Source: Saccharopolyspora spinosa NRRL 18395 (lineage in GTDB: Bacteria; Actinomycetota; Actinomycetes; Mycobacteriales; Pseudonocardiaceae). From it: a DNA stretch of 64,000 nucleotides. The notes below the pieces were generated by a model. It did no database searches and was not told the DNA's origin. It saw only the letters and a list, made by a program, of their open reading frames with translations. This document shows, in pieces, positions 47,431 through 63,830 of this stretch (its first letter is position 1; each line of letters starts with the position of its first letter). The position numbers and the translations under genes are program-made. The stretch is from NCBI RefSeq assembly GCF_000194155.1, contig NZ_GL877879.1:2160014-2224013 (forward strand), written 5' to 3'.

Positions 47431-49167
<1,737 letters not shown>

Positions 49168-49945: not shown

Positions 49946-51147
49946 ATGCGGATCATCCTGACCAGCCTGCCCTACTACTCCCACCTGGTGCCGGTTGTGG
50001 TCCCGGTGGCCCACGCCCTGCGGCGCGCCGGGCACACCGTCGCCGTCGCGACCGCACCGTACATGGCCTCGGAACTCTCGCGGCACTGCGTCGAACACCT
50101 GCCGCTGCCGAACGTCCAAACCCTCGAACAGCTGCTCGCCGCCCCGCGTTCGTCACCAGCCCCGGCATGCCCGGAGCGGAAGGGGAAGCCGCCGAGGACA
50201 CCGCGCGCACCCGCGAGAATCCCGGTCCGCTGATGAAGGCGTTCGCCGGGCCGCTGGCCGGGATCTTCGCCCGGGATCTGATCGCTGCGGCGGCGGACTG
50301 GCGGCCGGACGTGGTCGTCCGGGTGTGCAATGAATTCGGTGGCTACCTCGCCGCGGAACGGCTCGACCTGCCGCGCGCGGTGCTCGACATCGCGCCGCGC
50401 TCGTCCGCGCATCTGCCGTTCCTGTGGGACACGCTCAACGGTCAGTTGGTCAATCTCAGGCTTGCTCCATCGGACGATCCGTGGCAGCCGAACGACGGTC
50501 TGCTGGCCGCCGTCGTGCCCGTCACGTGGTACCCGCGGCGCCTGCGCACGCCATCCCTCCGCGCCTTCCGGCCGAATTCCGTTGCGCCACAAGCAGTTAC
50601 GACTTTACTCCGAACGGCCGCTGATTCTCGCCGGGCTCGGTACGGTCGCGCACACCGTTTGCCCGTGGCCCCGCAACTGCTCGCCGCGACGGTCGCCGCG
50701 CTCGGTGAGCTGCCGTGCACCGGCGTGGTGTCGCTGGGGCCGGCACTGGAGAGCTGGACCGGGCCGCGACCGGCGAACGTCCGCCTGGTTTCCTTCGCGC
50801 CGCAACGAGAGCTGCTCGGCAGGGCTGTGATTTTCCTTTCGCACGGCGGCTTCGGGGGCGTCCACGATGCAGTGCAGGCCGGGACGCCGATGGTGAACCT
50901 GCCGTTGTTCGCGGACCAACCGGACAACGCACGTCGCGTCACCGAGCTGGGCCTGGGCCTGGGCCTGGGCCTGGGCCTGCACGTCAACCCCGCTGCGGCG
51001 ACGCCGGACGTGCTGGCCGACGCGACCGGCCGCGTGCTCGCCGACGGCGGATTCCGGTGCCGCGCCGCAGATCTGGCTCGCTGGGCAGGTGCGGGAAGCG
51101 CCCGGCTTCGACGTGCTGGCCGAGGATCTCGCCGCCTTGACTTGAGC
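49946..51147 (+). pseudogene. MGT/UGT-type glycosyltransferase pseudogene, several frameshifts
   Basis: GT1-type antibiotic glycosyltransferase. ATG at 49946 opens RIILTSLPYYSHLVPVVVPVAHALRRAGHTVAVAT; a frameshift leads to FVTSP..., MKAFAGPLAGIFARDLIAAAADWRPDVVV and GGYLAAERLDLPRAVLD. A third frame carries ERPLILAGLGTVAHTV, and a return frame ELPCTGVVSLG, LVSFAPQRELLGRAVIFLSHGGFGGVHDAVQAGTPMVNLP (acceptor/donor HGG and the PLFADQPDNA). The C-terminus QIWLAGQVREAPGFDVLAEDLAAL is in yet another frame. At least four shifts. A 5-copy hexanucleotide repeat lies in it. Confidence 0.75.
50947..50976 (+). repeat. hexanucleotide microsatellite, (CTGGGC)5
   Basis: Five perfect tandem CTGGGC units encode alternating Leu-Gly inside the glycosyltransferase pseudogene. 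It is in frame, so copy-number change alone would not alter the reading frame. Confidence 0.9.
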
Positions 51148-51443
51148 CGCCGACGGAAACACCTTCGTCACGGCCCGGAAACCGGAATGCGCTCAATCTC
51201 GCACGCGAGCCTACGGAATTGTCGGCCTACCGTCGATCCGCAATCGGGAATGGTGCCCGAAATTCCGGCGACCGTGCCCGGGAAAGCAAAACCGAATGTC
51301 ACAGTTTTGTTCTGGTGGACAATTTACTTTCAGCTGCTTGACAATCGATCACGACGACACGCAGTCTAACGGAGGCTCTGATCTAGAATGTGGTGACAGG
51401 CGATGGAAAGCCCGTGTGCGGCAACGGAAAGGCCTTCATTCAC
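51148..51443. other. upstream region of the terpenoid operon
   Basis: About 295 bp, A/T-richer than its flanks and without a gene. It should contain the promoter of the operon that starts with the aminotransferase: TTGACA at 51338-51343 is a weak -35 candidate, but no good -10 hexamer is visible 16-18 bp downstream. Confidence 0.4.
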
Positions 51444-52436
51444 GTGACTCAGATCATTCATCAGCTGTCCCTGAACGAAAACACTTCCCGGCCATTGCCG
51501 GGCGTGCTCGAAGCGGCCGAAAGTAGCCTCGGCCGCATGCACCTCACGCTCGACGCGCTGGCCTCCGGACTCACCAACGCGATCGCGGAGCGGTTCGCGA
51601 TCGGGCCGGAGCGGGTGGTCGCCGGCGCCGGTTCAGGGGCCCTGCTCCAGCAGTTCCTCACCGCGCACTCCGTTGCCGGCGCGTCCGTCGTGCACGCCTG
51701 GCCGTCGTTCGAGCTGTACCCGCTGCTGATCCGCAACGCGCTGGCCGAACCGGTCGCGGTGCCCTCGGACGGGGACGGCCAGGACCTAGCGGCGCTGGCC
51801 GCCGCCGTCACTGCGAAGACGAAGGTCGTGCTGCTGTGCAACCCGAACAACCCGACCGGCGAGGTGCTCGGCCACGCTGAACTGGCGGACTTCCTCGCCG
51901 CGCTGCCCCCGCACGTGCTGGTGCTGATCGACGAGGCGTACCGCGAGTTCGCCGACCCGGCGCAGATCGCCGACGGGCTCGCCCTCGCGGCGGCCGACGA
52001 CCGGGTCGCGGTCGTGCGCACGTTCTCCAAGTCCCACGGCCTGCTCGGTCTCCGCGCCGGATACCTGGTGGCGGCCGAACCGGTGGCCGCGGCGCTGCGG
52101 CCGATGCTGCCGTTCTACCGGGTGCCGACCGTCGCGCAGGCCGCGGCGCTGGCGGCGCTCGATGCGGAGGACGCGATGCGCGAACGCTGTCGCGAGGTGG
52201 CGGCAGAGCGCGACCGCGTGCGGACCGGGCTGCTCGAACTGGGCTGGGACGTGCCGCCCAGCGGCGGGAACTTCCTTTGGCTGCGACTCGGGGAACGGAA
52301 CAAGTCCTTTGTGGACTACCTAGCCGCGCGCGGCGTCGCGGTGCGCGAGATCGCCAGCGCCGGGGTGCGCGTGAGCACCGGGACACCGGAGGCGAACGAC
52401 GCGTTGCTGGTGCTGGCCAAGGAGTTCAACCAATGA
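51444..52436 (+). CDS. HisC-like PLP-dependent aminotransferase
   Basis: 330 residues from GTG 51444; GTG 51390 (348 residues) is also in frame. Fold type I class II aminotransferase: HQLSLNENTSRPLPGV at the N-terminus, the NPNNPTG loop (VVLLCNPNNPTGEVL), D in LIDEAYREF, and the PLP lysine in RTFSKSHGLLGLRAGY. This family includes histidinol-phosphate aminotransferases and threonine-phosphate decarboxylases, so amine or amino acid substrates are likely. First gene of an overlapping operon; its stop overlaps the polyprenyl synthase start (ATGA). In a meroterpenoid pathway it could make or modify the acceptor amine, but this is inference. Confidence 0.83.
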   Translation: MTQIIHQLSLNENTSRPLPGVLEAAESSLGRMHLTLDALASGLTNAIAERFAIGPERVVAGAGSGALLQQFLTAHSVAGASVVHAWPSFELYPLLIRNALAEPVAVPSDGDGQDLAALAAAVTAKTKVVLLCNPNNPTGEVLGHAELADFLAALPPHVLVLIDEAYREFADPAQIADGLALAAADDRVAVVRTFSKSHGLLGLRAGYLVAAEPVAAALRPMLPFYRVPTVAQAAALAALDAEDAMRERCREVAAERDRVRTGLLELGWDVPPSGGNFLWLRLGERNKSFVDYLAARGVAVREIASAGVRVSTGTPEANDALLVLAKEFNQ

Positions 52437-53443
52437 CCGCCGCGCACTCCCTGATCCACGAGGTCACCTCGTCCGCTGTCGCGACGGACATCCGGCGCGC
52501 GCTCACCGCGCGTTGGCCCGCCACCGGTGAACGCCTCGACGAGGTCGCCCGCTACGCGCTGCTGTCGCCGGGCAAGCTGCTGCGGCCGCTGGTGCTGGCA
52601 GCCTCGGCCGAGGCCGTCGGCGGCGATCGCGAAGCGGTGATGCCCGCAGCGCTGGCCGTGGAGTACCTGCACGCGGCGTCGCTGGTGCACGACGACATCA
52701 TCGACGGCGACGACACCCGCCGTGGCCGGGCGTCGGTGCACGCCCGCTACAGCGTGTCCGACGCGATCGTCACCGGGGATGCGTTGATCATCAAGCTGTT
52801 CGGCGCGCTTGCCGAATGCACGGTGCCGGAGACGAACATCCTGTCCGCAGTGCGCATACTCGCGCGAGCGGGCGAAGACCTGTGCCGCGGCCAGGTGCAG
52901 GAGGCATTGCTGGTGCCGCCTGCGCACGACACGCCGGGCAGCGGTCTCGCGGCCTACCTCCAGGTGGCAGCGCTCAAGACCGGTGCGCTGTTCCGCGGCT
53001 CGTGCCAGGCCGGCGCGGTGCTCGGCGGCGGATCGCCCGATGAGGTCGGCGTCGTAACGGAGTTCGCCGAGCACGCGGGCCTCGCGTTCCAGATGTACGA
53101 CGACCTGCTGCCGTTCCTGGGTGATCCCGAGATCACCGGGAAACCGGGCACGAGTGACGTGGCGAACCTCCGCCCGACGTTCCCGGTGTTGCTGGCCCAC
53201 CGCGAGGGAGGACCGGCCGAGCGCAGTCGGATCGAGCAGGTGCTGGCCGGCGGGCTCCGACCGGATGCGGCGCTGGCCGCCTTGCGCGAGGTCGTGGTGG
53301 CGACGGGCGCGCTTGACCTCGCACTGGCGCAAGCGCGCGAGGAGGTGCGGCTGGCCAAGTCCGGGCTCGGCGTGCTCCCCGTCGCCGAGGCCGCCGGGCT
53401 ACTCGGCGCCGTGGCCGAACTCGCGGCGCGGAGGGACCGCTGA
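52433..53443 (+). CDS. polyprenyl diphosphate synthase
   Basis: 336-residue trans-prenyltransferase of the IPPS family. First Asp-rich motif HDDIIDGDD at residues 86-94; second motif is MYDDLLPFLGD, with Pro in place of the usual last Asp of DDxxD. GK-like KPGTSD follows. It would condense IPP onto an allylic diphosphate; chain length cannot be predicted with confidence. ATG at 52433 overlaps the aminotransferase stop. Supplies the prenyl donor for the UbiA-type enzyme encoded 2 bp downstream. Confidence 0.85.
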   Translation: MTAAHSLIHEVTSSAVATDIRRALTARWPATGERLDEVARYALLSPGKLLRPLVLAASAEAVGGDREAVMPAALAVEYLHAASLVHDDIIDGDDTRRGRASVHARYSVSDAIVTGDALIIKLFGALAECTVPETNILSAVRILARAGEDLCRGQVQEALLVPPAHDTPGSGLAAYLQVAALKTGALFRGSCQAGAVLGGGSPDEVGVVTEFAEHAGLAFQMYDDLLPFLGDPEITGKPGTSDVANLRPTFPVLLAHREGGPAERSRIEQVLAGGLRPDAALAALREVVVATGALDLALAQAREEVRLAKSGLGVLPVAEAAGLLGAVAELAARRDR

Positions 53444-53445
53444 CC

Positions 53446-54459
53446 GTGGCGCCGACGATCACGGGACTGTGCCGGCGGATCGGCTGGTCGGTCCTCGCTC
53501 ACGTGCAGACCTGGCGCCCCTACACCTCCTGCTACCCCGCGCTGCTCGGGCTCGCGGGGACCGCGGTGGCCGGGGGCGCGGGCCGTGCGGACGCGCTGGT
53601 CGTCGCGGCGCTGGCCCCGACGCTGGGTTGGCTGTCCGGGCACTACCTCGGCGACTACTTCGACCGCAACCTCGATGCGATCGGCAAACCGCATCGGCCG
53701 ATCCCATCGGGACGCCTGTCCACCGAGGCCGCGCTGTTCGGGGGCCTGGCGTGCGCGGCACTTTCGGCCGTGCTGGTGGTGTGGGCGAACTGGCGGATCG
53801 TGCCGCTGTTCGTCGTCGCGGTAGCCGGGATCGTCGCCTACAGCAAGGTGTTCAAGCGGCGCGGCATCGCCGGCAACGTCACGCGCGGCTCGCTCACCGC
53901 GCTCACCCTCGTGATCGGCGCAATGGTGGCAGCGGCATGGCCCCCGTGGCCGCTGCTGCCGGTGGCGGCGGGTTTCCTCCTGCACGACACCGCGTCGAAT
54001 CTGGTGGGAACGGTCCGCGACGTCGACGGCGACCGTGCCGGTGGCTACCGCTCGGTGCCGGTGCGCCGCGGCGTCCGGCACGCGGTCCTGCTCGCCCTGC
54101 GCCTGTACAGCGGTGGCGTCGCGCTGGTCGTGCTCGGCGCGGTGTGGGCGACAACGGATCCGGCCGCCCAGCTCGCTATCACCGCAGTCGCCGCCATCAT
54201 CGGGGCCTGCGCGTTCACCCCGTTGGTGCGCGCCGGTGACGTCGTGAGCGCGCGGACCGCGCTGCGCGCCCACGAACTGCTGGTGGCCGAACGCCTCGTG
54301 CTCGCCGCCGCGATCATCGCAGGTGCCGCCGGCGGCCGCTTCGCGCTCGCAATCGTGCTGCCCGTACTGCTGTTCTCGCTACTCACCCAAGCGCTGATGC
54401 GCGCCCGCCACGAGTTCCCGCCCGCCCCTGCGGTGGCCGGGAGAAAGGACCCTGCGTGA
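53446..54459 (+). CDS. UbiA-family prenyltransferase
   Basis: 337-residue membrane prenyltransferase with eight or nine helices. The Mg-prenyl-diphosphate motif GDYFDRNLDAIGKPHRPIPSGRLS resembles aromatic and DGGGP-type UbiA enzymes (NxxxDxxxD changed to GxxxDxxxD at the first position). The second Asp motif is VRDVDGDRAGG. It transfers a prenyl chain to an acceptor, or in some relatives acts as a terpene cyclase. GTG at 53446, 2 bp after the polyprenyl synthase stop; its own stop overlaps the cyclase start (GTGA). Confidence 0.85.
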   Translation: MAPTITGLCRRIGWSVLAHVQTWRPYTSCYPALLGLAGTAVAGGAGRADALVVAALAPTLGWLSGHYLGDYFDRNLDAIGKPHRPIPSGRLSTEAALFGGLACAALSAVLVVWANWRIVPLFVVAVAGIVAYSKVFKRRGIAGNVTRGSLTALTLVIGAMVAAAWPPWPLLPVAAGFLLHDTASNLVGTVRDVDGDRAGGYRSVPVRRGVRHAVLLALRLYSGGVALVVLGAVWATTDPAAQLAITAVAAIIGACAFTPLVRAGDVVSARTALRAHELLVAERLVLAAAIIAGAAGGRFALAIVLPVLLFSLLTQALMRARHEFPPAPAVAGRKDPA

Positions 54460-56117
54460 CGTTCCTGCGTCCCGACCAGATCAACGAGGCGATCACCGAG
54501 GGCGCCGAGGCGCTGTTCGCCGCACAACGCGAGGACGGGGTGTTCGACTACGGCGGAGCAAGCCTGACGTCGACGCTCGGCACGGTTGGCGCCGTGTGCG
54601 CGCTGCACTTCGCCGATCCTGGAGGGGCTGCGGACCTGATCGAGGCAGGCGTCGGCTGGCTCAAGCGCACGCAGGCCGCCGAAGGCGGCTGGGCGATGGT
54701 GCCCGGCGAGGCGTCCGAGGCCGGGCCGACGGCAGTGGCGTCGGCCGTGCTGCACCTGGCAGATCCGCGCGGCAATGCCGCCGCCGTCGAGTCCGGTCAG
54801 GAGTGGATGCGGGAATTCGGCGGCTTGGAGGCGATCCCGCACGCCGAGGTCGTTGCGTGGTGCCGGCAGTTCTACGGCTTCGCGGGCTGGCTCGACGCGC
54901 GCGAGATGCGGCGGTTCCCGCTTGAGCTGGCACTGCTGCCCGGGCTGTACCGGCGGCTGTTCGACCTGCGCGCGCCGATGGTCTCCGCGCTCGGCCTGGC
55001 CCAGACGCGGCACAAACCGCTGACCCGGCTGCAGCAGTCGTTGGCGAAGCTCGCGGAGCCGAACGCGCTCGCGGTGATCCGGCAGGTCTACGAGCACGAG
55101 GGCAGCACCGGCGGATGGTGTGAGGACGCCTGGGTGACCGGGCTGATCTGCACCGGGCTCGCACGCGCCGGGCTGGGCGGTGACATGGTCGACGGTGCCG
55201 TCGGCTGGTTCCGCCGGACGGCCGCTCCCGACGGCTCGTGGTCGAGCGGACCGCTGGACCTGACCTGGTCGATGTACGCCACCGCCGGTCTGCTCGAAGC
55301 CGGGTACGCGGACGACCCCCGACTGGCCGCCGTCAAGGAGCTCTTCCTTCGCCTGCAACAGGACCAGCCGTTCACCGCGTTCGGCTGCGCGCCCGGGTTC
55401 TGGGGCTGGTCGGGAACTCGCGGCTGGCCCGCGACGCTGGAGACCGGTGAGATCCTGTCCGCGCTGAACCACCTGCCCGGCACGGACCAGGCCGATGCCG
55501 TGCGCCGCGGCGTCACCTGGCTGACGCTGCAGCAGGACACCCGCGGGTCGTGGGGCTTGTGCGTGCGAAACACGAAGGTCGCCAACAGCGGACCGTGCCC
55601 GCACATGACCGCGCAGGCCGTGGACGGGCTGCTGGACTCGGGTGTGCCCGCCGAAGACCGCCGCGTGCGCCGCGCGCTGCGCTGGCTGGCCAAGGCGCAG
55701 AAGCCGGACGGGAGCTTCGAGTCCGTCTGGTACCGCATGCACACCGCAGGAACCTCGGCCGTGCTTCAGACCTTCGCCAAAGCCGGTGCGGCAGAAGGCG
55801 AACCGGCACGGCGCGCGAGGGCGTGGCTCGAACGCACGCGGCTGACCGACGGCTCATGGGGCACCGGTGCCGGCGAGCCCGGGACCGTCGAGGAGACCGG
55901 CTGGGCGGTGTCGGCACTGCTGGCCGCCGGTGCCGAGCCGGATTCCGCGCGGTCCGGTGTGGACTGGCTGCTGGCGCACCGGCTGCCCGGCGGCGGCTGG
56001 CCTGCCGCGAACGTCAACGAATACGTGCGGCACGTCTGCCGGTACCCGAATCCCGCGTTGGCGCACGGTCTCGCGCTGAAAGCCCTCGCCCGCTACCGGA
56101 AGGCGGTGGCGCGATGA
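54456..56117 (+). CDS. squalene-hopene-cyclase-like class II terpene cyclase without DxDD
   Basis: 553 residues with several QW-type repeats (EGGWAMVPG, TGGWCEDAW, PDGSWSSGPLDLTWSMYATAGLLEAG, PDGSFESVWYRMHTAG, TDGSWGTGAG, GGGWPAANVN), the alpha-barrel repeat of SHC and oxidosqualene cyclases. The protein is shorter than SHC (about 630). No DxDD proton donor is present anywhere, so if it acts on an epoxide another acid must start the reaction. GTG start overlaps the UbiA stop. The FAD monooxygenase follows with a 4-nt overlap, which supports epoxide-initiated cyclisation. Family membership is firm; substrate and activity are inferred. Confidence 0.8.
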   Translation: MTFLRPDQINEAITEGAEALFAAQREDGVFDYGGASLTSTLGTVGAVCALHFADPGGAADLIEAGVGWLKRTQAAEGGWAMVPGEASEAGPTAVASAVLHLADPRGNAAAVESGQEWMREFGGLEAIPHAEVVAWCRQFYGFAGWLDAREMRRFPLELALLPGLYRRLFDLRAPMVSALGLAQTRHKPLTRLQQSLAKLAEPNALAVIRQVYEHEGSTGGWCEDAWVTGLICTGLARAGLGGDMVDGAVGWFRRTAAPDGSWSSGPLDLTWSMYATAGLLEAGYADDPRLAAVKELFLRLQQDQPFTAFGCAPGFWGWSGTRGWPATLETGEILSALNHLPGTDQADAVRRGVTWLTLQQDTRGSWGLCVRNTKVANSGPCPHMTAQAVDGLLDSGVPAEDRRVRRALRWLAKAQKPDGSFESVWYRMHTAGTSAVLQTFAKAGAAEGEPARRARAWLERTRLTDGSWGTGAGEPGTVEETGWAVSALLAAGAEPDSARSGVDWLLAHRLPGGGWPAANVNEYVRHVCRYPNPALAHGLALKALARYRKAVAR

Positions 56118-57361
56118 CCTACGACGTCGTGGTGTGCGGGGCCGGCGTCGCCGGGCTGGCGGCGGCATGCGCGCTGGGCCGGCTGGGTCGGCGCGTGCTG
56201 CTGGTGGACAAGCAGGAGCGGGTGCGGCCGGTCGCCAAGGGCGAGGTGTTCCAACCGGGGGCGCTGGCGATCCTGCACGAGTGGGGCGTCGCGACGCGGC
56301 TGGAAGCGGCCGGGGCCCTGCGGCTCGGGATGCTGGTCGCTCGCGACGCCGAAGGCCGCGCGCAAATGGCCCTCGACTACGCGCGCCTGCCCGCGCAGCG
56401 CAACTGGCTGCTCGCCCAGGATTACCCGGCGATCCTCGAAGCGCTAACGAAATCCCTGCCGGACAACGTCGAGTTCAGCCGCGGCAAGCTGATCACCGGC
56501 CTGCTTTCCAGCGGCGGTCGGATCACGGGCGTCCGGATCGGCGACGACGTCGTCGAGGCAGCGCTCGTGGTCGCCGCCGACGGCATGTCGTCCCGCCTGC
56601 GCCGCGAGGCCGGCATCGAGATCCGCCGTGACGACTACCCGCACCGGCTGGTCGCGCTGGAGCTGCACGACGCACCGGAGGTCGAACCCGACTTCTCCGC
56701 TTACGTCACGCCGCGCGGGCTGCGCCTGCGCTACCCGTTGCCGGACGGCCGGATCCGGCTCTATGCGCAGACCGGAACGCACGAGATGCGCGGTCTCAGC
56801 GCCGACGGACTGGACCGCTGGGCCACCGATCTGGTCCGGGAAACTCCCGCGCTCGCACCGCTGGAGGAGTCGATCCGCACGAACCTCGCCGCCCGGCAGT
56901 TGCTGCCGGTGTCCCGGTTCCTCGCGCCATCGCTTGCCGTCCCGGGCCTGGCGCTGGTCGGGGACAGCGGGCACACCGTGCACCCGATGGCCGCGCAGGG
57001 CATGAACAGCGCGATCGCCGACGCCCACGAGCTCGCCACGATGCTGCGGCAGGGCGGCTCGCTCGCCCCGTCCGCCGTCGATCACGCGCTGACGCGGTAT
57101 TCGGCCGCGCGCCGGGAGAATCTGGCGCACATCGGCCGGACGAGCCACAACGCGGCGAGGATGATCACGGACCTGTCATGGGTGGGCCGGTTCGCCGGCC
57201 GCCGGGCGCTGCGCGGCACCGGGGGCAACGACCGGATCCGCTACACCGTGATGCACACGATGTCCGGGCTGGGCGTGCACCCGCTGACCCCGCTGGACCG
57301 GCTGCACCAGCTGGGGTTGCTGCCGGACCCGCGGGCCCGGCAGCTCCCGTCCTGGGCGTGA
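56114..57361 (+). CDS. FAD-dependent monooxygenase, probable prenyl epoxidase
   Basis: 415-residue group A flavin monooxygenase. It has [21 protein letters not shown] (GxGxxG), the DG motif in [10 protein letters not shown], and [24 protein letters not shown] (GD motif). The family covers aromatic hydroxylases and squalene-epoxidase-like enzymes. Its position directly after a class II cyclase-like gene favours epoxidation of a prenyl double bond, but hydroxylation of an aromatic acceptor is possible. ATG at 56114 overlaps the cyclase stop; last gene of the overlapping operon, 8 bp from the convergent methyltransferase. Confidence 0.83.
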
Positions 57362-57369
57362 GCGCGGTG

Positions 57370-58371
57370 TCAGCCCGTGCACTCCACGACGACCAGCCCG
57401 CTCGGCCAGCGGTGCGTGGCGTACACCGACAGGCCCGCAGCCGCGGAAAGCTTGTGGAAGTCGGCGATGGTGCGCTCACGACCGCCCAGCAGCGTCAGCG
57501 ACTGCAGGTCGAACGAGGAGTTGTTCTTCGCGTGCTCCTCGCCAGCGAGCACCTCGACGATCGCGACGCGTCCGTCAGGCCCCGCGGCCTCGCCGCAGCG
57601 GCGCAGGATCTTCGTGGCGTTCTCGTCGTTCCAGTCGGTCAGCACCCGCGACACCAGCAGCACGTCGTAGCCGACCGGCAGCGGATCGAAGAAGCTGCCG
57701 CCGACGAACTCCGCGCGTCCGGAAAGCCCGGCCTCGGCGAACGCCTGCTCGGCTTCGGGACGCACCGGTGGCAGGTCCAGCACGGCGCCCGTCAGGTGCT
57801 GGTGCTTGAGCAGCACCTCCGAGAGCAGTGCCCCCGTCCCACCACCGACGTCGAGCACCCGTCGCACCCCGGACCAGTCGTACTCTGCGGCCACGGCCGG
57901 GCCGGTCTGCCAGGCGTGCGCGGCCATGATCGCGCCGAAGAACAGCCGCAGCCGTTCATCGCGCTGGTAGTCAGCCCAGAACTCGACGCCGTGCACCCGA
58001 CCGTACGCGGATTCGCCGGTGCGCACCGAATGCAGCATCCCGGTGTAGGCGAGGTCCATCTTCGCGCCCGGGCCGCCGATGTCGAGCCAGCCGCGCTGCC
58101 AGCGGTGTTCCTCGCCAAGCAGTTCGCGCGACAACGGTGTGAGCCCGTAGGCGCCCGGCGCTGTTTCGGCGAACAGGCCGACGGACACCAGGTGCCGCAG
58201 CAGCCGCGCGAGCGAGTCCTCGTCGCACTCGCTCGCGGCGGCCAGCTCCGCCAGGCCGGTGGTGCCGGCCTCGACCAACTCCGGCAGCCGCAGGGCGACC
58301 GCGGTGCGGATCGCAAACGGGGTCGCCAGGTCCACGAGGCGGGCGAGCTCGGCAGCGGCATCGTGCGGCAT
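57370..58371 (-). CDS. SAM-dependent O-methyltransferase
   Basis: 333 residues, plant-type/small-molecule O-methyltransferase. An N-terminal dimerisation helical domain ([28 protein letters not shown]) precedes the SAM motif [19 protein letters not shown]. The C-terminus has [12 protein letters not shown] and a catalytic region around [19 protein letters not shown] (RVLHDWxDxxxxxIL type). Convergent with the FAD monooxygenase; divergent from the dioxygenase with a 163-bp shared promoter region. Probably methylates a hydroxyl in the final product. Confidence 0.9.
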
Positions 58372-58534
58372 GAGCGTCCTTTCGACGAAGGGGTTCGAGG
58401 GCCGCCGGAAACTATATCCGGCACGACCAGAATGCCAATTCAGAACAATTCTCGTCAACCATTGCTCGAATGTTTTTCCCGGGTGACGAAAGGGCATTTC
58501 TCCCTGCCCGAAAAACGTAAGCGAAAGGAGAAAG

Positions 58535-59394
58535 ATGACCAAGAACCGTTTCGACGTGCGCCCGGTTTCCGGGGCTCTCGGCGCGGAAGTGCGCGGGGTA
58601 CCGCTCGACGCGCTGACCGACTCCGATTTCACCACGGTGCGGGAACTGCTGCTGGACTGCGGGAACTGCTGCTGAACCACCTCGTGCTGTTCTTCCCGGA
58701 CGCGGCCGGACTCGAACCGGAAGCGCACAAGGCGTTCGGCCGCCGGTTCGGCGAACTGGAGGTGCACCCGTTCCTGCCGAAGCTTTCCGGGCACGACGAG
58801 CTGGTGGTGCTGGACTCGGATCAGGGCGCGCGCGCCGACGTCTGGCACACCGATGTCACGTTCAGCCCCTCGCCGCCGATCGCGTCGGTCCTGCAGCTCG
58901 TGGAATGCCCGGCGGCTGGCGGGGACACGATGTGGAGCAACCAGTACCTGGCGTTCGAAGCGCTGTCCGCGCCGGTGTCCGAGCTGCTCGAAGGGCTCAC
59001 CGCAGTGCACGTCTTCGAGCACCCGAACGGCTCGTTCCGCAGCGAGGCCGAGCATCCCGTGGTGCGCACGCACCCGGAAACCGGCCGCCGCTCGCTGTAC
59101 GTCAACCGCATGTTCACCCGCCGAATCCCGCAGCTGACCTCGGGTGAGAGCGACGCGCTGCTGAACCACCTGTTCGAAGTCTCCGAAAGCCCCCAACGGG
59201 TTTGCCGCTACCGCTGGGTCCCCGGCGCGGTCGCGGTCTGGGACAACCGAGCGACCCAGCACTACGCCGTGAACGACTACACCGGCCGCCGGGTCGGCCG
59301 CCGCGTCACAGTGCTCGGCGACAAGCCCGTCGGCGAACCGGCCCGCTGGCCCCACCACGAGGAGAGCGCGCTCAGCGCGTCGACCAGTAAGTAA
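58535..59394 (+). pseudogene. TauD/TfdA-type dioxygenase split by a 20-nt tandem duplication
   Basis: Fe(II)/alpha-ketoglutarate dioxygenase. ATG at 58535 (AGGAG upstream) reads [28 protein letters not shown] until a stop at 58673 caused by a duplicated segment. In the next frame the rest is fully conserved: [14 protein letters not shown], metal ligands in WHTDVTF (HxD) and the distal His in [11 protein letters not shown], 2-oxoglutarate Arg in GRRVTVLGD, to a stop at 59394. Deleting one 20-nt repeat would restore an intact 279-residue reading frame. So the gene is off as sequenced, but slippage could turn it on. Confidence 0.85.
58638..58674 (+). repeat. 20-nt tandem duplication in the dioxygenase gene
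   Basis: 17 identical bases at 58638-58654 recur at 58658-58674 with a 20-nt period (TGCGGGAACTGCTGCTG, spaced by GAC). The period is not a multiple of three, so the extra copy shifts the frame and creates the stop at 58673. Confidence 0.92.
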
Positions 59395-59439: not shown

Positions 59440-59576
59440 GAGGCAAGCGATCCGCCTCGCTCCTCGGATTCGTCCACAGAGGACTAACGGCGAGCCCGAA
59501 CCGGACCGGCAGCGCGAACGCACGCCGAGCCGGTGACGTTCGGGGACCTCGACGATGCGCGCGCACTGCGCGCGGC

Positions 59577-59664
59577 GCGGCGGCCGGTTGGCGACCGCTG
59601 CGCGTCACGCGGCGGCCGGTTGCCGACCGCTGCGCGTCACGCGGCGGCCGGTTGCCGACCGAGG
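59577..59664 (+). repeat. 32-nt tandem repeat, about 2.7 copies
   Basis: Units start at 59577, 59609 and 59641 (GCGGCGGCCGGTTG-type, 32-nt period). The repeat covers the GGRLPT stretch of the adjoining formylglycine-generating-enzyme relic. Confidence 0.85.
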
Positions 59665-59950
59665 ACGAGTGGCAACTCGCCAGCGAGACCGGTCGGCTGC
59701 GAGGCGGCAAGCCCGCCATCTGGAACTGGACCGAGAGCGAGCACTCCGACACGGGCGGACCCGGTTCGTCATGCTCAAGGGCGGCAGCGACATCCAGGCC
59801 GAGGGCTCGAGTGGTACCTCGACGGCGGACGCCAGGCACCGGAATTCAGCATGAAGCTGCTCCTGCCCGGACTGGGATGCGGGCGCAGCGCAACAGTCGG
59901 CTTCCGCTGCGCCTGGGATCTGCCCGCCGCGGAAACCGCACCACCAAGCT
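59640..59950 (+). pseudogene. formylglycine-generating enzyme (SUMF1) C-terminal relic
   Basis: GGRLPTEDEWQLASETGRLRGG and WNWTESEHSD in one frame, then RFVMLKGGSDIQAEGS and EWYLDGGRQAPEFSMKLLLPGLGCGRSATVGFRCAWDLP in other frames, follow the order of the C-terminal half of formylglycine-generating/sulfatase-modifying enzymes. The N-terminal half and the active-site Cys pair are not present. At least two frameshifts. Confidence 0.68.
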
Positions 59951-59988
59951 CGTTTGCGCAGTGGCGCATCAACACTGGCCAGTATGAA

Positions 59989-60201
59989 GCGAACGGCCCG
60001 TCCACTCCGATAGACGACACAAACGGTCCGTTCGCCCCAACCACCCAACCCCACCACCAACTATGAAGCGAACGGCCCGTCCGCCCCGATAGACGACACA
60101 AACGGTCCGTTCGCCCCAACCCCACCACCCCACCACCCCACCACCGACTATGAAGCGAACGGCCCGTCCGCCCCGATAGATGACGTAAACGGTCCGTTCG
60201 C
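59989..60201. repeat. three-copy array of a 47-nt hairpin repeat
   Basis: Hairpin units at 59989-60035, 60068-60114 and 60155-60201. Each has a left arm GCGAACGGCCCG and a right arm CGGTCCGTTCGC, which pair at 11 of 12 positions across a 23-nt conserved loop. Units are spaced by A/C-rich (CCACCACCCC-type) tracts and start with TATGAA. A fourth, inverted copy is at 26528-26574. Confidence 0.88.
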
Positions 60202-60215
60202 TCCAACTGCTCCAC

Positions 60216-61047: not shown

Positions 61048-62058
61048 TCAGTCAACCGGTTCGACCGCGAGGTCCGGCCATCGGACTGTCGTGGATCCCC
61101 AGGTGAATCCGGCTCCGAACGCGGTCATCAGGACGAGATGTCCAGGCTGCAAGGCTCCGCTGGTCACGCCATCGACGAGCGCGAGCGGAATCGACGCCGC
61201 CGAGGTGTTACCGAACCGCTCGATGTTGGTGACGAGGCGGTCCTGCGGGAGGTCCAACTGCTTTGCCACCGCATGCAGGATGCGGATGTTGGCCTGGTGA
61301 CCGACGACTCGATCGACGTCACCAATAACGTGTCCTGCTCGGGCAAGCGCAGTCCTGGACGACGACGACATGTTGGCGACCGCGGCGAGGAAAACTTCCT
61401 TGCCCGCCATGTATATGTACCTGTCGGTCTCCTCGGCGACCGCGTCAGGCATCGAATACGTTCGAATCCCGGCCGGGACATTGATCAGGTCCGCGTGCTC
61501 ACCGGAGCTGTGCAAGTCGAACCCCGCGAATACGCCCGGTTCTCCCTGCTCGCCTGCCCGCAGCACGACAGCACCTGCGCCATCCCCGAAAAGTGGGGCC
61601 GTCATGCGGTCGTTGGGGTTCGTGATCGTCGACAAGACGTCCACGGCGATCAGCAGGACGCTGTCTGCCACACCCGACGTGATCAATCCCGTGGCGACCC
61701 CCAGCCCGTACACGAACCCGGCACACGCCGCATTGAGGTCGAAGGCCGCGACACCGGTCAACCCCATCTCGGTCGCCACCGAAGGCGCGGTGGCCGGGAT
61801 GACCTGGTCGGGCGTCGTGGTCGCGAGCACCAAATGGTCTACGGTGGTCAGCTTGGACGACCGCAACGCCCGTGTACCGGCCTGCACAGCGATGTCCCTA
61901 GTCGACATCTCCGGTGCGGCCACCCGCCGGGCCCCGATACCTGTTCGTGTTCTGATCCACTCATCGGTCTCCGCGATCCGCGAAGCTACCTCGTCGTTGG
62001 TGACCACCCGGGGTGGTGCCCACGCCCCGAGCCCCGCGAGGACCGCTGTCCTGGTCAT
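61048..62058 (-). CDS. 3-oxoacyl-ACP synthase III (FabH-like)
   Basis: 336-residue KAS III. The catalytic triad is visible as Cys112 in AFDLNAACAGFVYGL, His in VVGHQANIRIL and Asn in FGNTSAASIPLAL. It should condense an acyl-CoA starter with malonyl-ACP, or transfer an acyl group. ATG at 62058 overlaps the stop of the ketosynthase (ATGA). In this context it is more likely a dedicated starter-selecting enzyme than housekeeping FabH. Confidence 0.92.
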   Translation of the reverse strand: MTRTAVLAGLGAWAPPRVVTNDEVASRIAETDEWIRTRTGIGARRVAAPEMSTRDIAVQAGTRALRSSKLTTVDHLVLATTTPDQVIPATAPSVATEMGLTGVAAFDLNAACAGFVYGLGVATGLITSGVADSVLLIAVDVLSTITNPNDRMTAPLFGDGAGAVVLRAGEQGEPGVFAGFDLHSSGEHADLINVPAGIRTYSMPDAVAEETDRYIYMAGKEVFLAAVANMSSSSRTALARAGHVIGDVDRVVGHQANIRILHAVAKQLDLPQDRLVTNIERFGNTSAASIPLALVDGVTSGALQPGHLVLMTAFGAGFTWGSTTVRWPDLAVEPVD

Positions 62059-63830
62059 GGGGTCACCGCCACGTTCACGCTGTCGAGCCAATATCTGCGG
62101 GTCTGCCACGGGTACGTGGGCAATTCCACGTAATGGGCGGCGGGATCCAGAACATCGCTCCAATCGGGCTTGCCACCGGCAAGGTAGTGGTCCACGACTG
62201 CGGCGAAGGCAGGATCCGCTGTGTGGCCCGCACCAGCTCCGTCGAGGTGCCTACGCAGCTTGGTGACGAGCTCGCTGGCGGAGGACGCCGTGCACGCGAG
62301 ACGGCAAGTGTGGTGGTCGCGGCGGGTGGCCGCGGTAAAGCAGATGTCGCGCAGTTCGAGGCCTTCGCCGGCCCCGCCTGGTTGCAGGTGTTGCACATAC
62401 CGGCGCACCAGGTCATCGAGCGCGGCAGGGGTGCGTGCGGAAACTGCGAACACGGACGCGGCGCGGGTTGCTGGCGGCCGCTCGGTGTCGCGCCAAGCCG
62501 GGTCGGACTCGCCGACGACAAGGTGGGTGTTGACCGAGGAAATGCCCTGCCCGCTGATGCCCGCCACAGCGAGGCGCCCACGGTCATGCAGCTGGTGCAC
62601 ACCGGTCGGCACTTCAACCGGGAGTTCGTCCCACGCCACCTTCGGATTGGGGACGTTGTAGTGCAAGCTTGGCACGACCTCGCGGTGTTCCAGGCACAGG
62701 ATGGTCTTGATCAGGGCGGCGACGCCTGCTGCGCCTTCGGTGTGCCCGAGGTTGGACTTGACCGAGCCGACGTACAGCGGGTGGTCCTCCGCCCGGCCGG
62801 CACCGAGCACTTCACCAAGTCCGGCGAATTCGATCGGGTCGATCATCGGTGTACCGGTGCCGTGCGCTTCGACGAAGTCGACGTCGGACGGCGTTACGCC
62901 CGCGTCCTCGTATGCCCAACGCAGCATCTGCACGTGTCCCTCGATCGACGGTGCGAGCAGCGAGCCGCTGCTCGCACCGTCATTGGTAACCGCGCTGCCG
63001 AGAATGACGCCACGGACGCGGTCGCCGTCGGCGAGGGCCTGGTCGAGGCGCTTCAGAACGACCACGCCGACCCCCTCGGAGGGGGCGAAGCCGTTGGCAG
63101 ACGCGTCGCCGAACTTGCATCTGCCGTCGGGCGCGAGCATCCCGATCTGGGACAGGAGCACGTCCTCGTCGGCAGTCAGCTTCAGGTTGACCCCGGCCGC
63201 CAGCGCCAGACCTGTTTCGCCCGCACGCAGGCTCTGACATGCCAGGTGCACGGCGACCAGTGACGACGAGCAGGCAGTGTCCAGCGGGATGCTCGGACCT
63301 CGCAGATCAAACGTGTAGGACAGTCTGCCGGACAGCACGGACCGGTAGTTGTAGATCGTCCCTGGGCTGATCGCCTCCGCACCCCGCTTGGCGACCAGAT
63401 CCCAGTAGTCCAGGTGCATGTTGCCCACGTAGACGCCGGTGCGGCTGCCGGCGATGGCCGAGGGCGCCTGCCCGGCATCTTCTAGCGCCTCCCAAGCGGT
63501 CATGAGCAGCAGCCGCTGCTGCGGGTCGAGGTTTTTCGCCTCGTTGGTGGACATCCCGAAGAATTCGGCGTCGAATTGGTCGATGCCGTCCAGGTATCCC
63601 GACCGGCGGCTGACTACCTTGCCCGGTGCCGGGTCCGGCGAGTACATCGCTTCGATGTCGTATCGCTCGATCGGCGTGTTCCCGGTCGCATCCGCACCGG
63701 CGCGCAACAGTTCCCACAGTTCCGCGACACCAGCTGCGCCAGGAAAACGACACGCCATGCCAACCACGGCAATCGCGTTGCGCCCGTCGGTGCGGCCCCA
63801 TCGGCCGCTTCGGGTCCGCGAAATGTTCAT
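62055..63830 (-). CDS. AT-less polyketide ketosynthase
   Basis: 591 residues. The N-terminal KS domain (about 18-450) has IAVVGMACRFPGA, Cys187 in DTACSSSL, His in EAHGTGTPMID and the KSNLGHTEGAAG histidine. After it come the KS-AT linker (FAVSARTPAALDDLVRRYV, LRDICFTAATRRDHHTCRLA) and directly the post-AT linker ending VELPTYPWQTRRYWL; the acyltransferase domain itself is missing. So it is a stand-alone AT-less KS that would rely on a trans-acting AT or the KAS III. ATG at 63830 overlaps the stop of the upstream gene; its own stop overlaps the KAS III start. Confidence 0.9.
   Translation of the reverse strand: MNISRTRSGRWGRTDGRNAIAVVGMACRFPGAAGVAELWELLRAGADATGNTPIERYDIEAMYSPDPAPGKVVSRRSGYLDGIDQFDAEFFGMSTNEAKNLDPQQRLLLMTAWEALEDAGQAPSAIAGSRTGVYVGNMHLDYWDLVAKRGAEAISPGTIYNYRSVLSGRLSYTFDLRGPSIPLDTACSSSLVAVHLACQSLRAGETGLALAAGVNLKLTADEDVLLSQIGMLAPDGRCKFGDASANGFAPSEGVGVVVLKRLDQALADGDRVRGVILGSAVTNDGASSGSLLAPSIEGHVQMLRWAYEDAGVTPSDVDFVEAHGTGTPMIDPIEFAGLGEVLGAGRAEDHPLYVGSVKSNLGHTEGAAGVAALIKTILCLEHREVVPSLHYNVPNPKVAWDELPVEVPTGVHQLHDRGRLAVAGISGQGISSVNTHLVVGESDPAWRDTERPPATRAASVFAVSARTPAALDDLVRRYVQHLQPGGAGEGLELRDICFTAATRRDHHTCRLACTASSASELVTKLRRHLDGAGAGHTADPAFAAVVDHYLAGGKPDWSDVLDPAAHYVELPTYPWQTRRYWLDSVNVAVTP

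What the first reader, a model, noticed from the sequence alone, without database searches (positions are those of the whole stretch)
51444..59394. Compact, apparently uncharacterised terpenoid/meroterpenoid cluster
Seen: aminotransferase, polyprenyl synthase, UbiA prenyltransferase, SHC-like cyclase and FAD monooxygenase read as one strand with overlaps or a 2-bp gap, followed by a convergent O-methyltransferase and a TauD dioxygenase, bounded by a hairpin. Known: epoxidase plus SHC-like cyclase plus UbiA is the logic of bacterial meroterpenoids (from memory, longestin/KS-505a is an analogue). An HisC-like enzyme at the head and a DxDD-less cyclase are unusual. Inference: the acceptor may be an amine or amino-acid-derived unit.
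Basis: partly seen in the sequence, partly recalled or inferred. Interest (0 to 1): 0.88.

Follow-up and report, generated by a model that had tools for sequence, protein, structure and literature searches.

The report
Brasilicardin-type terpenoid amino acid cluster
A soil actinobacterium carries a recurring set of seven genes that most likely builds a ringed terpenoid tipped with an amino acid, related to the immunosuppressant brasilicardin; the kind is known, but I found no known product for this branch of it.

Summary
The gene set is real: AT (51444-52436), polyprenyl synthase, UbiA, SHC-like cyclase and FAD monooxygenase run on one strand with 4-bp overlaps or a 2-bp gap, then OMT (minus), TauD (plus) and a 17-bp perfect hairpin. 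One correction: TauD is split here by a 20-bp tandem duplication; 58 of 59 TauD copies examined are unsplit.

The set recurs: 45 of 89 cyclase loci examined hold all seven families. It fits the published brasilicardin cluster: core genes bra1-bra6 plus bra0 and bra11 for methoxylation. A Nocardia-genus locus (G411) shows TauD divergent from AT-PPS-UbiA-CYC-FMO-P450-acyltransferase-GT-OMT.

Best reading (inferred): UbiA joins GGPP to a small, probably C3, keto acid; the FAD enzyme epoxidises the far end; the cyclase closes three rings; AT makes the alpha-amino acid; TauD plus OMT add a methoxy group.

The cyclase does lack DxDD: in all 67 relatives beside this FAD-enzyme type or AT, the acid position is hydrophobic and the next residue Glu or Asp. 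The HisC-like enzyme and DxDD-less cyclase are family traits. New member of a known kind; product unknown.

The parts
51444..52436 (+). PLP aminotransferase, Pat/aromatic-aminotransferase-like (AT)
   Evidence: PF00155; NCBIfam PRK03321 344 bits, below its cut-off 374; best solved relative 4r2n; PLP Lys and carboxylate Arg kept in 57 of 58 AT rows, the other has a gap; nearest paralogue in the same genome 44% identical
52433..53443 (+). polyprenyl diphosphate synthase, probably GGPP
   Evidence: PF00348; Ala at -5 and Ser at -4 before the first Asp motif (meaning for chain length recalled)
53446..54459 (+). UbiA prenyltransferase with GDxxDxxxD and DxxGD motifs
   Evidence: PF01040; motifs across relatives
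54456..56117 (+). class II (SHC-like) cyclase without DxDD; A326-T327-L328-E329 stand at that site
56114..57361 (+). FAD monooxygenase, probable terminal-alkene epoxidase
   Evidence: PF01494, and PF08491 squalene epoxidase
57370..58371 (-). SAM O-methyltransferase (PF00891)
   Evidence: best 3i53
58535..59394 (+). TauD-type Fe/2OG dioxygenase, split by a frameshift
   Evidence: PF02668; two tblastn pieces in two frames
58638..58677 (+). 20-bp tandem duplication at the TauD break
   Evidence: single copy in L119, L116 and L001
59402..59439 (.). hairpin, 17-bp perfect arms, 4-nt loop, after TauD
49946..51369 (+). macrolide-type glycosyltransferase remnant in more than one frame; a 393-residue gene stands at this place in L116
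49699..49935 (+). C-terminal remnant of an FkbM methyltransferase; longer gene upstream of the GT in L001
42941..44172 (+). P450-like stretch in two frames; possible distant tailoring gene
   Evidence: two tblastn pieces, 31% and 42% to the L003 P450; the first piece alone has no Pfam hit

Best explanation
It is a brasilicardin-type biosynthetic cluster. The polyprenyl synthase makes GGPP; UbiA transfers it to a small alpha-keto-acid-type acceptor, probably C3 (pyruvate, PEP or similar); the FAD monooxygenase epoxidises the terminal alkene; the class II cyclase opens the epoxide and closes a tricyclic ring system, probably using a Glu one position along from the usual acid; the aminotransferase turns the keto acid end into an alpha-amino acid; TauD hydroxylates and the O-methyltransferase methylates that hydroxyl. 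P450 and glycosyltransferase genes decorate the core in some relatives. In the window strain AT to OMT are full-length, but TauD, GT and an FkbM methyltransferase are broken, so it may make only a simpler congener. Shown: gene content, order, motifs, relatives, breaks. Inferred: every chemical step, the acceptor and the product.
For: The gene set equals the bra core plus methoxylation pair as described in print: bra1-6 core, bra0 and bra11 methoxylation, bra0 a dioxygenase divergent from bra1, product a tricyclic diterpene linked directly to an amino acid side chain. G411 (Nocardia genus) shows TauD divergent from AT-PPS-UbiA-CYC-FMO-P450-acyltransferase-GT-OMT (GT named by eye, no Pfam hit). 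The cyclases of all 58 AT-bearing loci are one side of one branch (99*, quick tree). Divergence of the seven proteins is correlated over 43 loci (r 0.73-0.93; cyclase against each of the other six, 0 of 999 permutations as high). UbiA of AT+ and of AT-less TauD+ loci lie together (99*), while the HPPD branch has a far-off UbiA. AT is nearest to a putative phenylalanine aminotransferase.
Against: No Bra sequence was available, so identity with Bra proteins was not measured. That bra1 is an aminotransferase, and that the side chain is C20+C3, is inference or recall, in no text I read. In G411 only two ORFs were recognised between P450 and OMT, fewer than bra7-bra10, and its flanks were not searched for a SARP. 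Three AT+ loci (L150, L152, L158) show no TauD or OMT, nine more no OMT. The window has no intact P450 near the core. AT-first pathways exist: ZigA is proposed to act on Trp before prenylation, and its loss was complemented by host transaminases, so lack of AT beside the AT-less loci does not prove that AT acts late. In the UbiA tree the AT+ rows are one side of a branch with support of only 29.
Confidence: 0.7

Rival explanations
1. Aromatic meroterpenoid: AT makes an aryl- or indolepyruvate from Tyr, Phe or Trp, UbiA prenylates it, then epoxidation and cyclisation; OMT methylates a phenol.
For: AT resembles a putative phenylalanine aminotransferase. ZigA-ZigB-ZigC of zigralone are the same AT-PPS-UbiA trio, acting on Trp. 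OMT is nearest to 3i53 and to anthracycline O-methyltransferases, which act on aromatic hydroxyls (substrates recalled). A broken tyrosine phenol-lyase lies upstream.
Against: UbiA is shared with AT-less loci and unlike the UbiA of the HPPD branch, where an aromatic acceptor is plausible. Beyond the core, P450 and GT no family recurs in more than 10 of the 46 flanks (those families were not domain-searched). None of L001-L008 gave a match to the tyrosine phenol-lyase within the stretches held.
Confidence: 0.18
2. The cluster is dying in this strain: TauD, GT, FkbM methyltransferase, a P450 and a tyrosine phenol-lyase are broken, and the core survives only for now.
For: Five broken genes within 42.9-59.4 kb; TauD unsplit in 58 of 59 loci.
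Against: AT, PPS, UbiA, cyclase, FMO and OMT are full-length, with the motifs looked at kept in the window. Some breaks may be assembly errors.
Confidence: 0.3
3. Phenalinolactone/tiancilactone-type diterpenoid with a butyrolactone rather than an amino acid.
For: Related logic: tiancilactones carry a butyrolactone and were found through atypical type II synthases (passage and title); phenalinolactone has a squalene-monooxygenase homologue; prenylation, epoxidation, cyclisation (title).
Against: AT is present in all 58 loci of the window's branch and was not seen in its sister branch of 9.
Confidence: 0.08

Closest known systems
Brasilicardin A cluster (Bra-BGC, Nocardia terpenica IFM 0406)
   Same: Core genes plus dioxygenase and methylation pair; tricyclic diterpene with amino acid side chain
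   Different: In the window TauD lies at the far end beside OMT and is broken, the only GT seen is of another type and broken, and no match to the G411 acyltransferase was found; cyclase 45% identical to the bra-like G411 one. Bra sequences themselves not seen
Zigralone (zig) cluster, Micromonospora zingiberis
   Same: AT, polyprenyl synthase, UbiA, methyltransferases
   Different: Pyr4-like membrane cyclase and a P450 epoxidase instead of SHC-like cyclase and FAD enzyme; indole unit from Trp
Phenalinolactone, tiancilactone and atolypene pathways
   Same: Prenylation-epoxidation-cyclisation, atypical or non-canonical class II cyclases (titles and passages only; that one title concerns atolypene is recalled)
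   Different: Sequences and AT content not seen here
Squalene-hopene cyclase
   Different: 553 residues against 631 in the chain matched; DxDD and the nearby His (H451, recalled number) absent
   Same: Bacterial terpenoid of mixed origin (recalled)
   Different: Tetraterpenoid with an aromatic unit (recalled); no cluster sequence seen

Membership tests
Brasilicardin-type cluster | Core genes for prenyl synthase, prenyltransferase, class II cyclase and partners in one operon-like run | tested here: met
   AT-PPS-UbiA-CYC-FMO overlap in the window; same order in G411. The equation with bra1-bra5 is inferred
Brasilicardin-type cluster | Dioxygenase plus methyltransferase pair for methoxylation (bra0, bra11) | tested here: met
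   TauD and OMT families present; TauD broken in this genome; that bra11 is the methyltransferase is inferred from the text
Brasilicardin-type cluster | Sixth core gene (a P450, by the G411 layout) | tested here: inconclusive
   Only a two-frame P450-like stretch about 8 kb upstream in the window; P450 seen near 34 of 46 AT+OMT+TauD loci, the window's counted
Brasilicardin A proper | 3-hydroxybenzoate and rhamnose genes (bra7-bra10) | tested here: inconclusive
   G411 acyltransferase and GT gave no match in the window; bra7-bra10 sequences not available; a different GT is present but broken
Brasilicardin A proper | SARP regulator bra12 | not tested
   not searched
Brasilicardin-type cluster | Sequence identity to Bra proteins | not testable with these tools
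Brasilicardin-type cluster | Product is a tricyclic terpenoid alpha-amino acid | not testable with these tools
   needs expression and chemistry
Squalene-hopene cyclase | DxDD acid motif | tested here: not met
   A-T-L-E in its place; two SHC controls read D-I-D-D
Zigralone-type cluster | Pyr4-like cyclase and TPP enzyme | tested here: inconclusive
   None among the ten window proteins given to Pfam and NCBIfam; not searched for by model

The most novel reading that the evidence does not exclude
The window belongs to a large, unexplored branch of terpenoid alpha-amino acids (37 loci in its cyclase clade, several genera), built by prenylating a small keto acid, in which the cyclase moved its catalytic acid by one residue when it switched from protonating alkenes to opening epoxides; the free amino acid products could be amino-acid-transporter ligands, as brasilicardin A is.
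Probability: 0.35. Interest if true: 0.66.

Novelty: new member of a known kind. Interest (0 to 1): 0.45.

Why it matters
[quoted passage not shown] A family with 58 AT-bearing loci among 89 examined offers new scaffolds and enzymes. The change from DxDD to a hydrophobic residue followed by Glu/Asp, seen in 67 of 67 cyclases beside AT or this FAD-enzyme type, while 4 of 9 loci with a more distant FAD enzyme keep D/E-x-D-D, makes a question about class II cyclase mechanism testable by mutation.

Tried and rejected
A plasmid search with the cyclase gave 10 partial hits under 60% identity, none covering 80%. Paper searches for this gene combination: 0 papers; some searches listed only related or unrelated work. 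Tyrosine phenol-lyase as acceptor supplier was dropped: it is broken and unmatched in L001-L008. My first TauD frame was wrong and gave spurious matches; corrected. Of five SHC control rows only L013 and L015 showed DIDD; the other three were on the wrong strand and ignored. The cyclase model is weak (pLDDT under 50 at 302-315 and 317-325) just before the motif, so the acid was not assigned from it. The careful UbiA tree did not finish; the quick one is quoted. In one search each protein row was extended upstream in frame to a limit, so some rows carry a few residues before the true start, and the row of L008 (split cyclase) carries out-of-frame residues; its branch is long. Absence of a gene in a locus means no match within the stretch held (mostly 19.5 kb; some cut by contig ends).
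Full report
What is there. The window lies in an 8.58-Mb genome (G000, completeness 98.39). Searches confirm five same-strand genes joined by 4-bp overlaps or a 2-bp gap (AT, PPS, UbiA, cyclase, FAD monooxygenase), an OMT on the other strand after 8 bp, and a TauD gene divergent from OMT. Pfam and NCBIfam agree on the families. A 17-bp perfect hairpin follows TauD. TauD is split: its first 40 or so residues and the rest lie in different frames, at a 20-bp tandem duplication. Of 59 TauD-bearing loci only the window's copy is split; that of the same-genus relative L119 (cyclase 96% identical) is not. Whether the break is real or an assembly error I cannot tell.

Relatives. A genome-contig scan gave 8 loci, all with all seven families in the same order (OMT flipped in two): Saccharopolyspora (2), Streptomyces (2), Amycolatopsis, Nocardia, an unnamed actinobacterium and a record labelled Melainabacteria. 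Whole-genome searches: full-length cyclase matches in 4 of 394 genomes of the class sample, own genome included; 3 of 150 in the Nocardia genus; 21 of 392 in the Streptomyces genus at E 1e-60, some partial; 70 of 390 in the window's own family, 18 of 46 genera. I fetched 80 regions, chosen by me, covering part of the 106 places listed. With the earlier loci and after dropping 5 duplicates, 89 loci with a cyclase were analysed. AT, OMT and TauD together occur in 46 of 89; all seven families in 45 (L151 lacks an FMO match; 43 were used after leaving out the window and L008). AT occurs in 58, TauD in 59.

Family tree. In the cyclase tree the 58 AT-bearing loci are one side of a branch (SH-aLRT 99, quick tree, midpoint root); the window sits in a 37-row clade (100) whose rows all have AT, OMT and TauD. 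Subtypes: P450 beside the core; a GT1/P450 type (L040, L146-L149, L151, L177); AT+TauD without OMT (L039, L103-L107, L114, L115, L145); AT without TauD (L150, L152, L158); TauD without AT (L109-L111, L178); an HPPD type (L041, L155, L156; HPPD confirmed by model for L041, 427.9 bits against a cut-off of 277); types with a distant FAD enzyme or none. Divergence of the seven proteins is correlated (r 0.73-0.93; Mantel tests of the cyclase against the other six, 0 of 999 permutations as high). This supports joint inheritance; related loci are not independent. Beyond the seven, P450 (30 of 46) and GT (13 of 46) recur in the flanks by the ORF picks; other families there occur in 10 loci or fewer, several being shadow frames of the core.

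The cyclase. The model's top fold match is squalene-hopene cyclase. At the DxDD site (89 rows): 13 loci without the FAD enzyme read E-S/T-E-D, with His at the site of SHC H451 (recalled number); of 9 loci with a distant FAD enzyme (FMO.k), 4 keep D/E-x-D-D and the His and 5 read N-S/T-G-N; the other 67 (every locus with AT or FMO.w/n/h) have Leu, Val or Met at the acid position, Glu or Asp at the next, and no His. The canonical acid centre was thus dismantled in the branches with this type of FAD enzyme or AT; the FMO.k loci show that a FAD enzyme alone does not go with the loss. The window's E329 is the natural candidate acid; E480 (Glu in 85, Asp in 4 of 89) is another. [quoted passage not shown] neither paper was seen.

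What it most likely makes. Two papers on brasilicardin regulation (passages and introductions read) describe bra1-bra6 as core genes, bra0 and bra11 as methoxylation genes, bra0 as a dioxygenase divergent from bra1, and the product as a tricyclic diterpene linked directly to an amino acid side chain. The G411 locus shows TauD divergent from AT-PPS-UbiA-CYC-FMO-P450, then an acyltransferase (PapA-type), a GT (by eye; no Pfam hit) and OMT, which fits that layout. Identities of G411 to the window: AT 46, PPS 51, UbiA 46, CYC 45, FMO 48, OMT 50; TauD 65, measured against L001. I infer that AT makes the amino acid, that UbiA attaches GGPP to a small keto acid, and that TauD and OMT add the methoxy group. 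That the side chain adds three carbons to C20 is recalled. The shared UbiA branch of AT+ and AT-less TauD+ loci, against the far-off UbiA of the HPPD branch, argues that AT acts after prenylation, but only weakly: in zigralone (main text read in full) AT is proposed to act first, on Trp, and its loss was made good by the host.

State in this strain. Broken: TauD, a glycosyltransferase (393 residues in L116), an FkbM methyltransferase remnant (longer in L001), a P450-like stretch about 8 kb upstream, and a tyrosine phenol-lyase whose N-terminal part lies in another frame. The six other core genes are full-length, with the motifs looked at kept. The strain may make a simpler congener or nothing.

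Prior art. Genome papers (passages read) already mention a cluster weakly similar to brasilicardin in Pseudonocardia, one of 30% gene identity in two species abbreviated Sps., and brasilicardin A in Lentzea fradiae. In searches (listings) I found no product for the window's branch; the library holds open-licence papers only.

Verdict. Real and conserved, with an explainable logic: a new member of a known kind, in a broad branch without a known product, with a clean cyclase-mechanism question attached.

Noticed in passing
window 48001-49167: Tyrosine phenol-lyase homologue matching model positions 89-450, its N-terminal part in another frame upstream: a broken gene.
   Followed up: partly
window 61048-62163 and 62055-63830 (minus strand): FabH-like KAS III beside a ketosynthase-like ORF (read by eye): a second biosynthetic locus next door.
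   Followed up: no
window 59566-60208: Three 32-nt tandem copies (59566-59661) and three copies of an 87-nt unit (59956-60208) downstream of the cluster.
   Followed up: no
L008: Record labelled Candidatus Melainabacteria carries a cluster whose proteins are most like the Nocardia locus L005 (cyclase 82%): probably a mis-binned actinobacterial contig.
   Followed up: partly
L041, L155, L156: HPPD-UbiA-PPS-cyclase-FAD clusters, perhaps a homogentisate-type meroterpenoid family with the same cyclase kind.
   Followed up: partly
window 57370-58371 and 45 other OMT rows: Thr stands where a catalytic His is usual in this methyltransferase family (recalled): Thr in 44 of 46 rows, Ser in 1, gap in 1.
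   Followed up: no
FMO rows of 75 loci: At the second FAD motif 58 of 75 FAD-enzyme rows read Glu where 17, the window among them, read Asp.
   Followed up: no
L129, L134, L179: Two AT copies flank the rearranged cluster.
   Followed up: no
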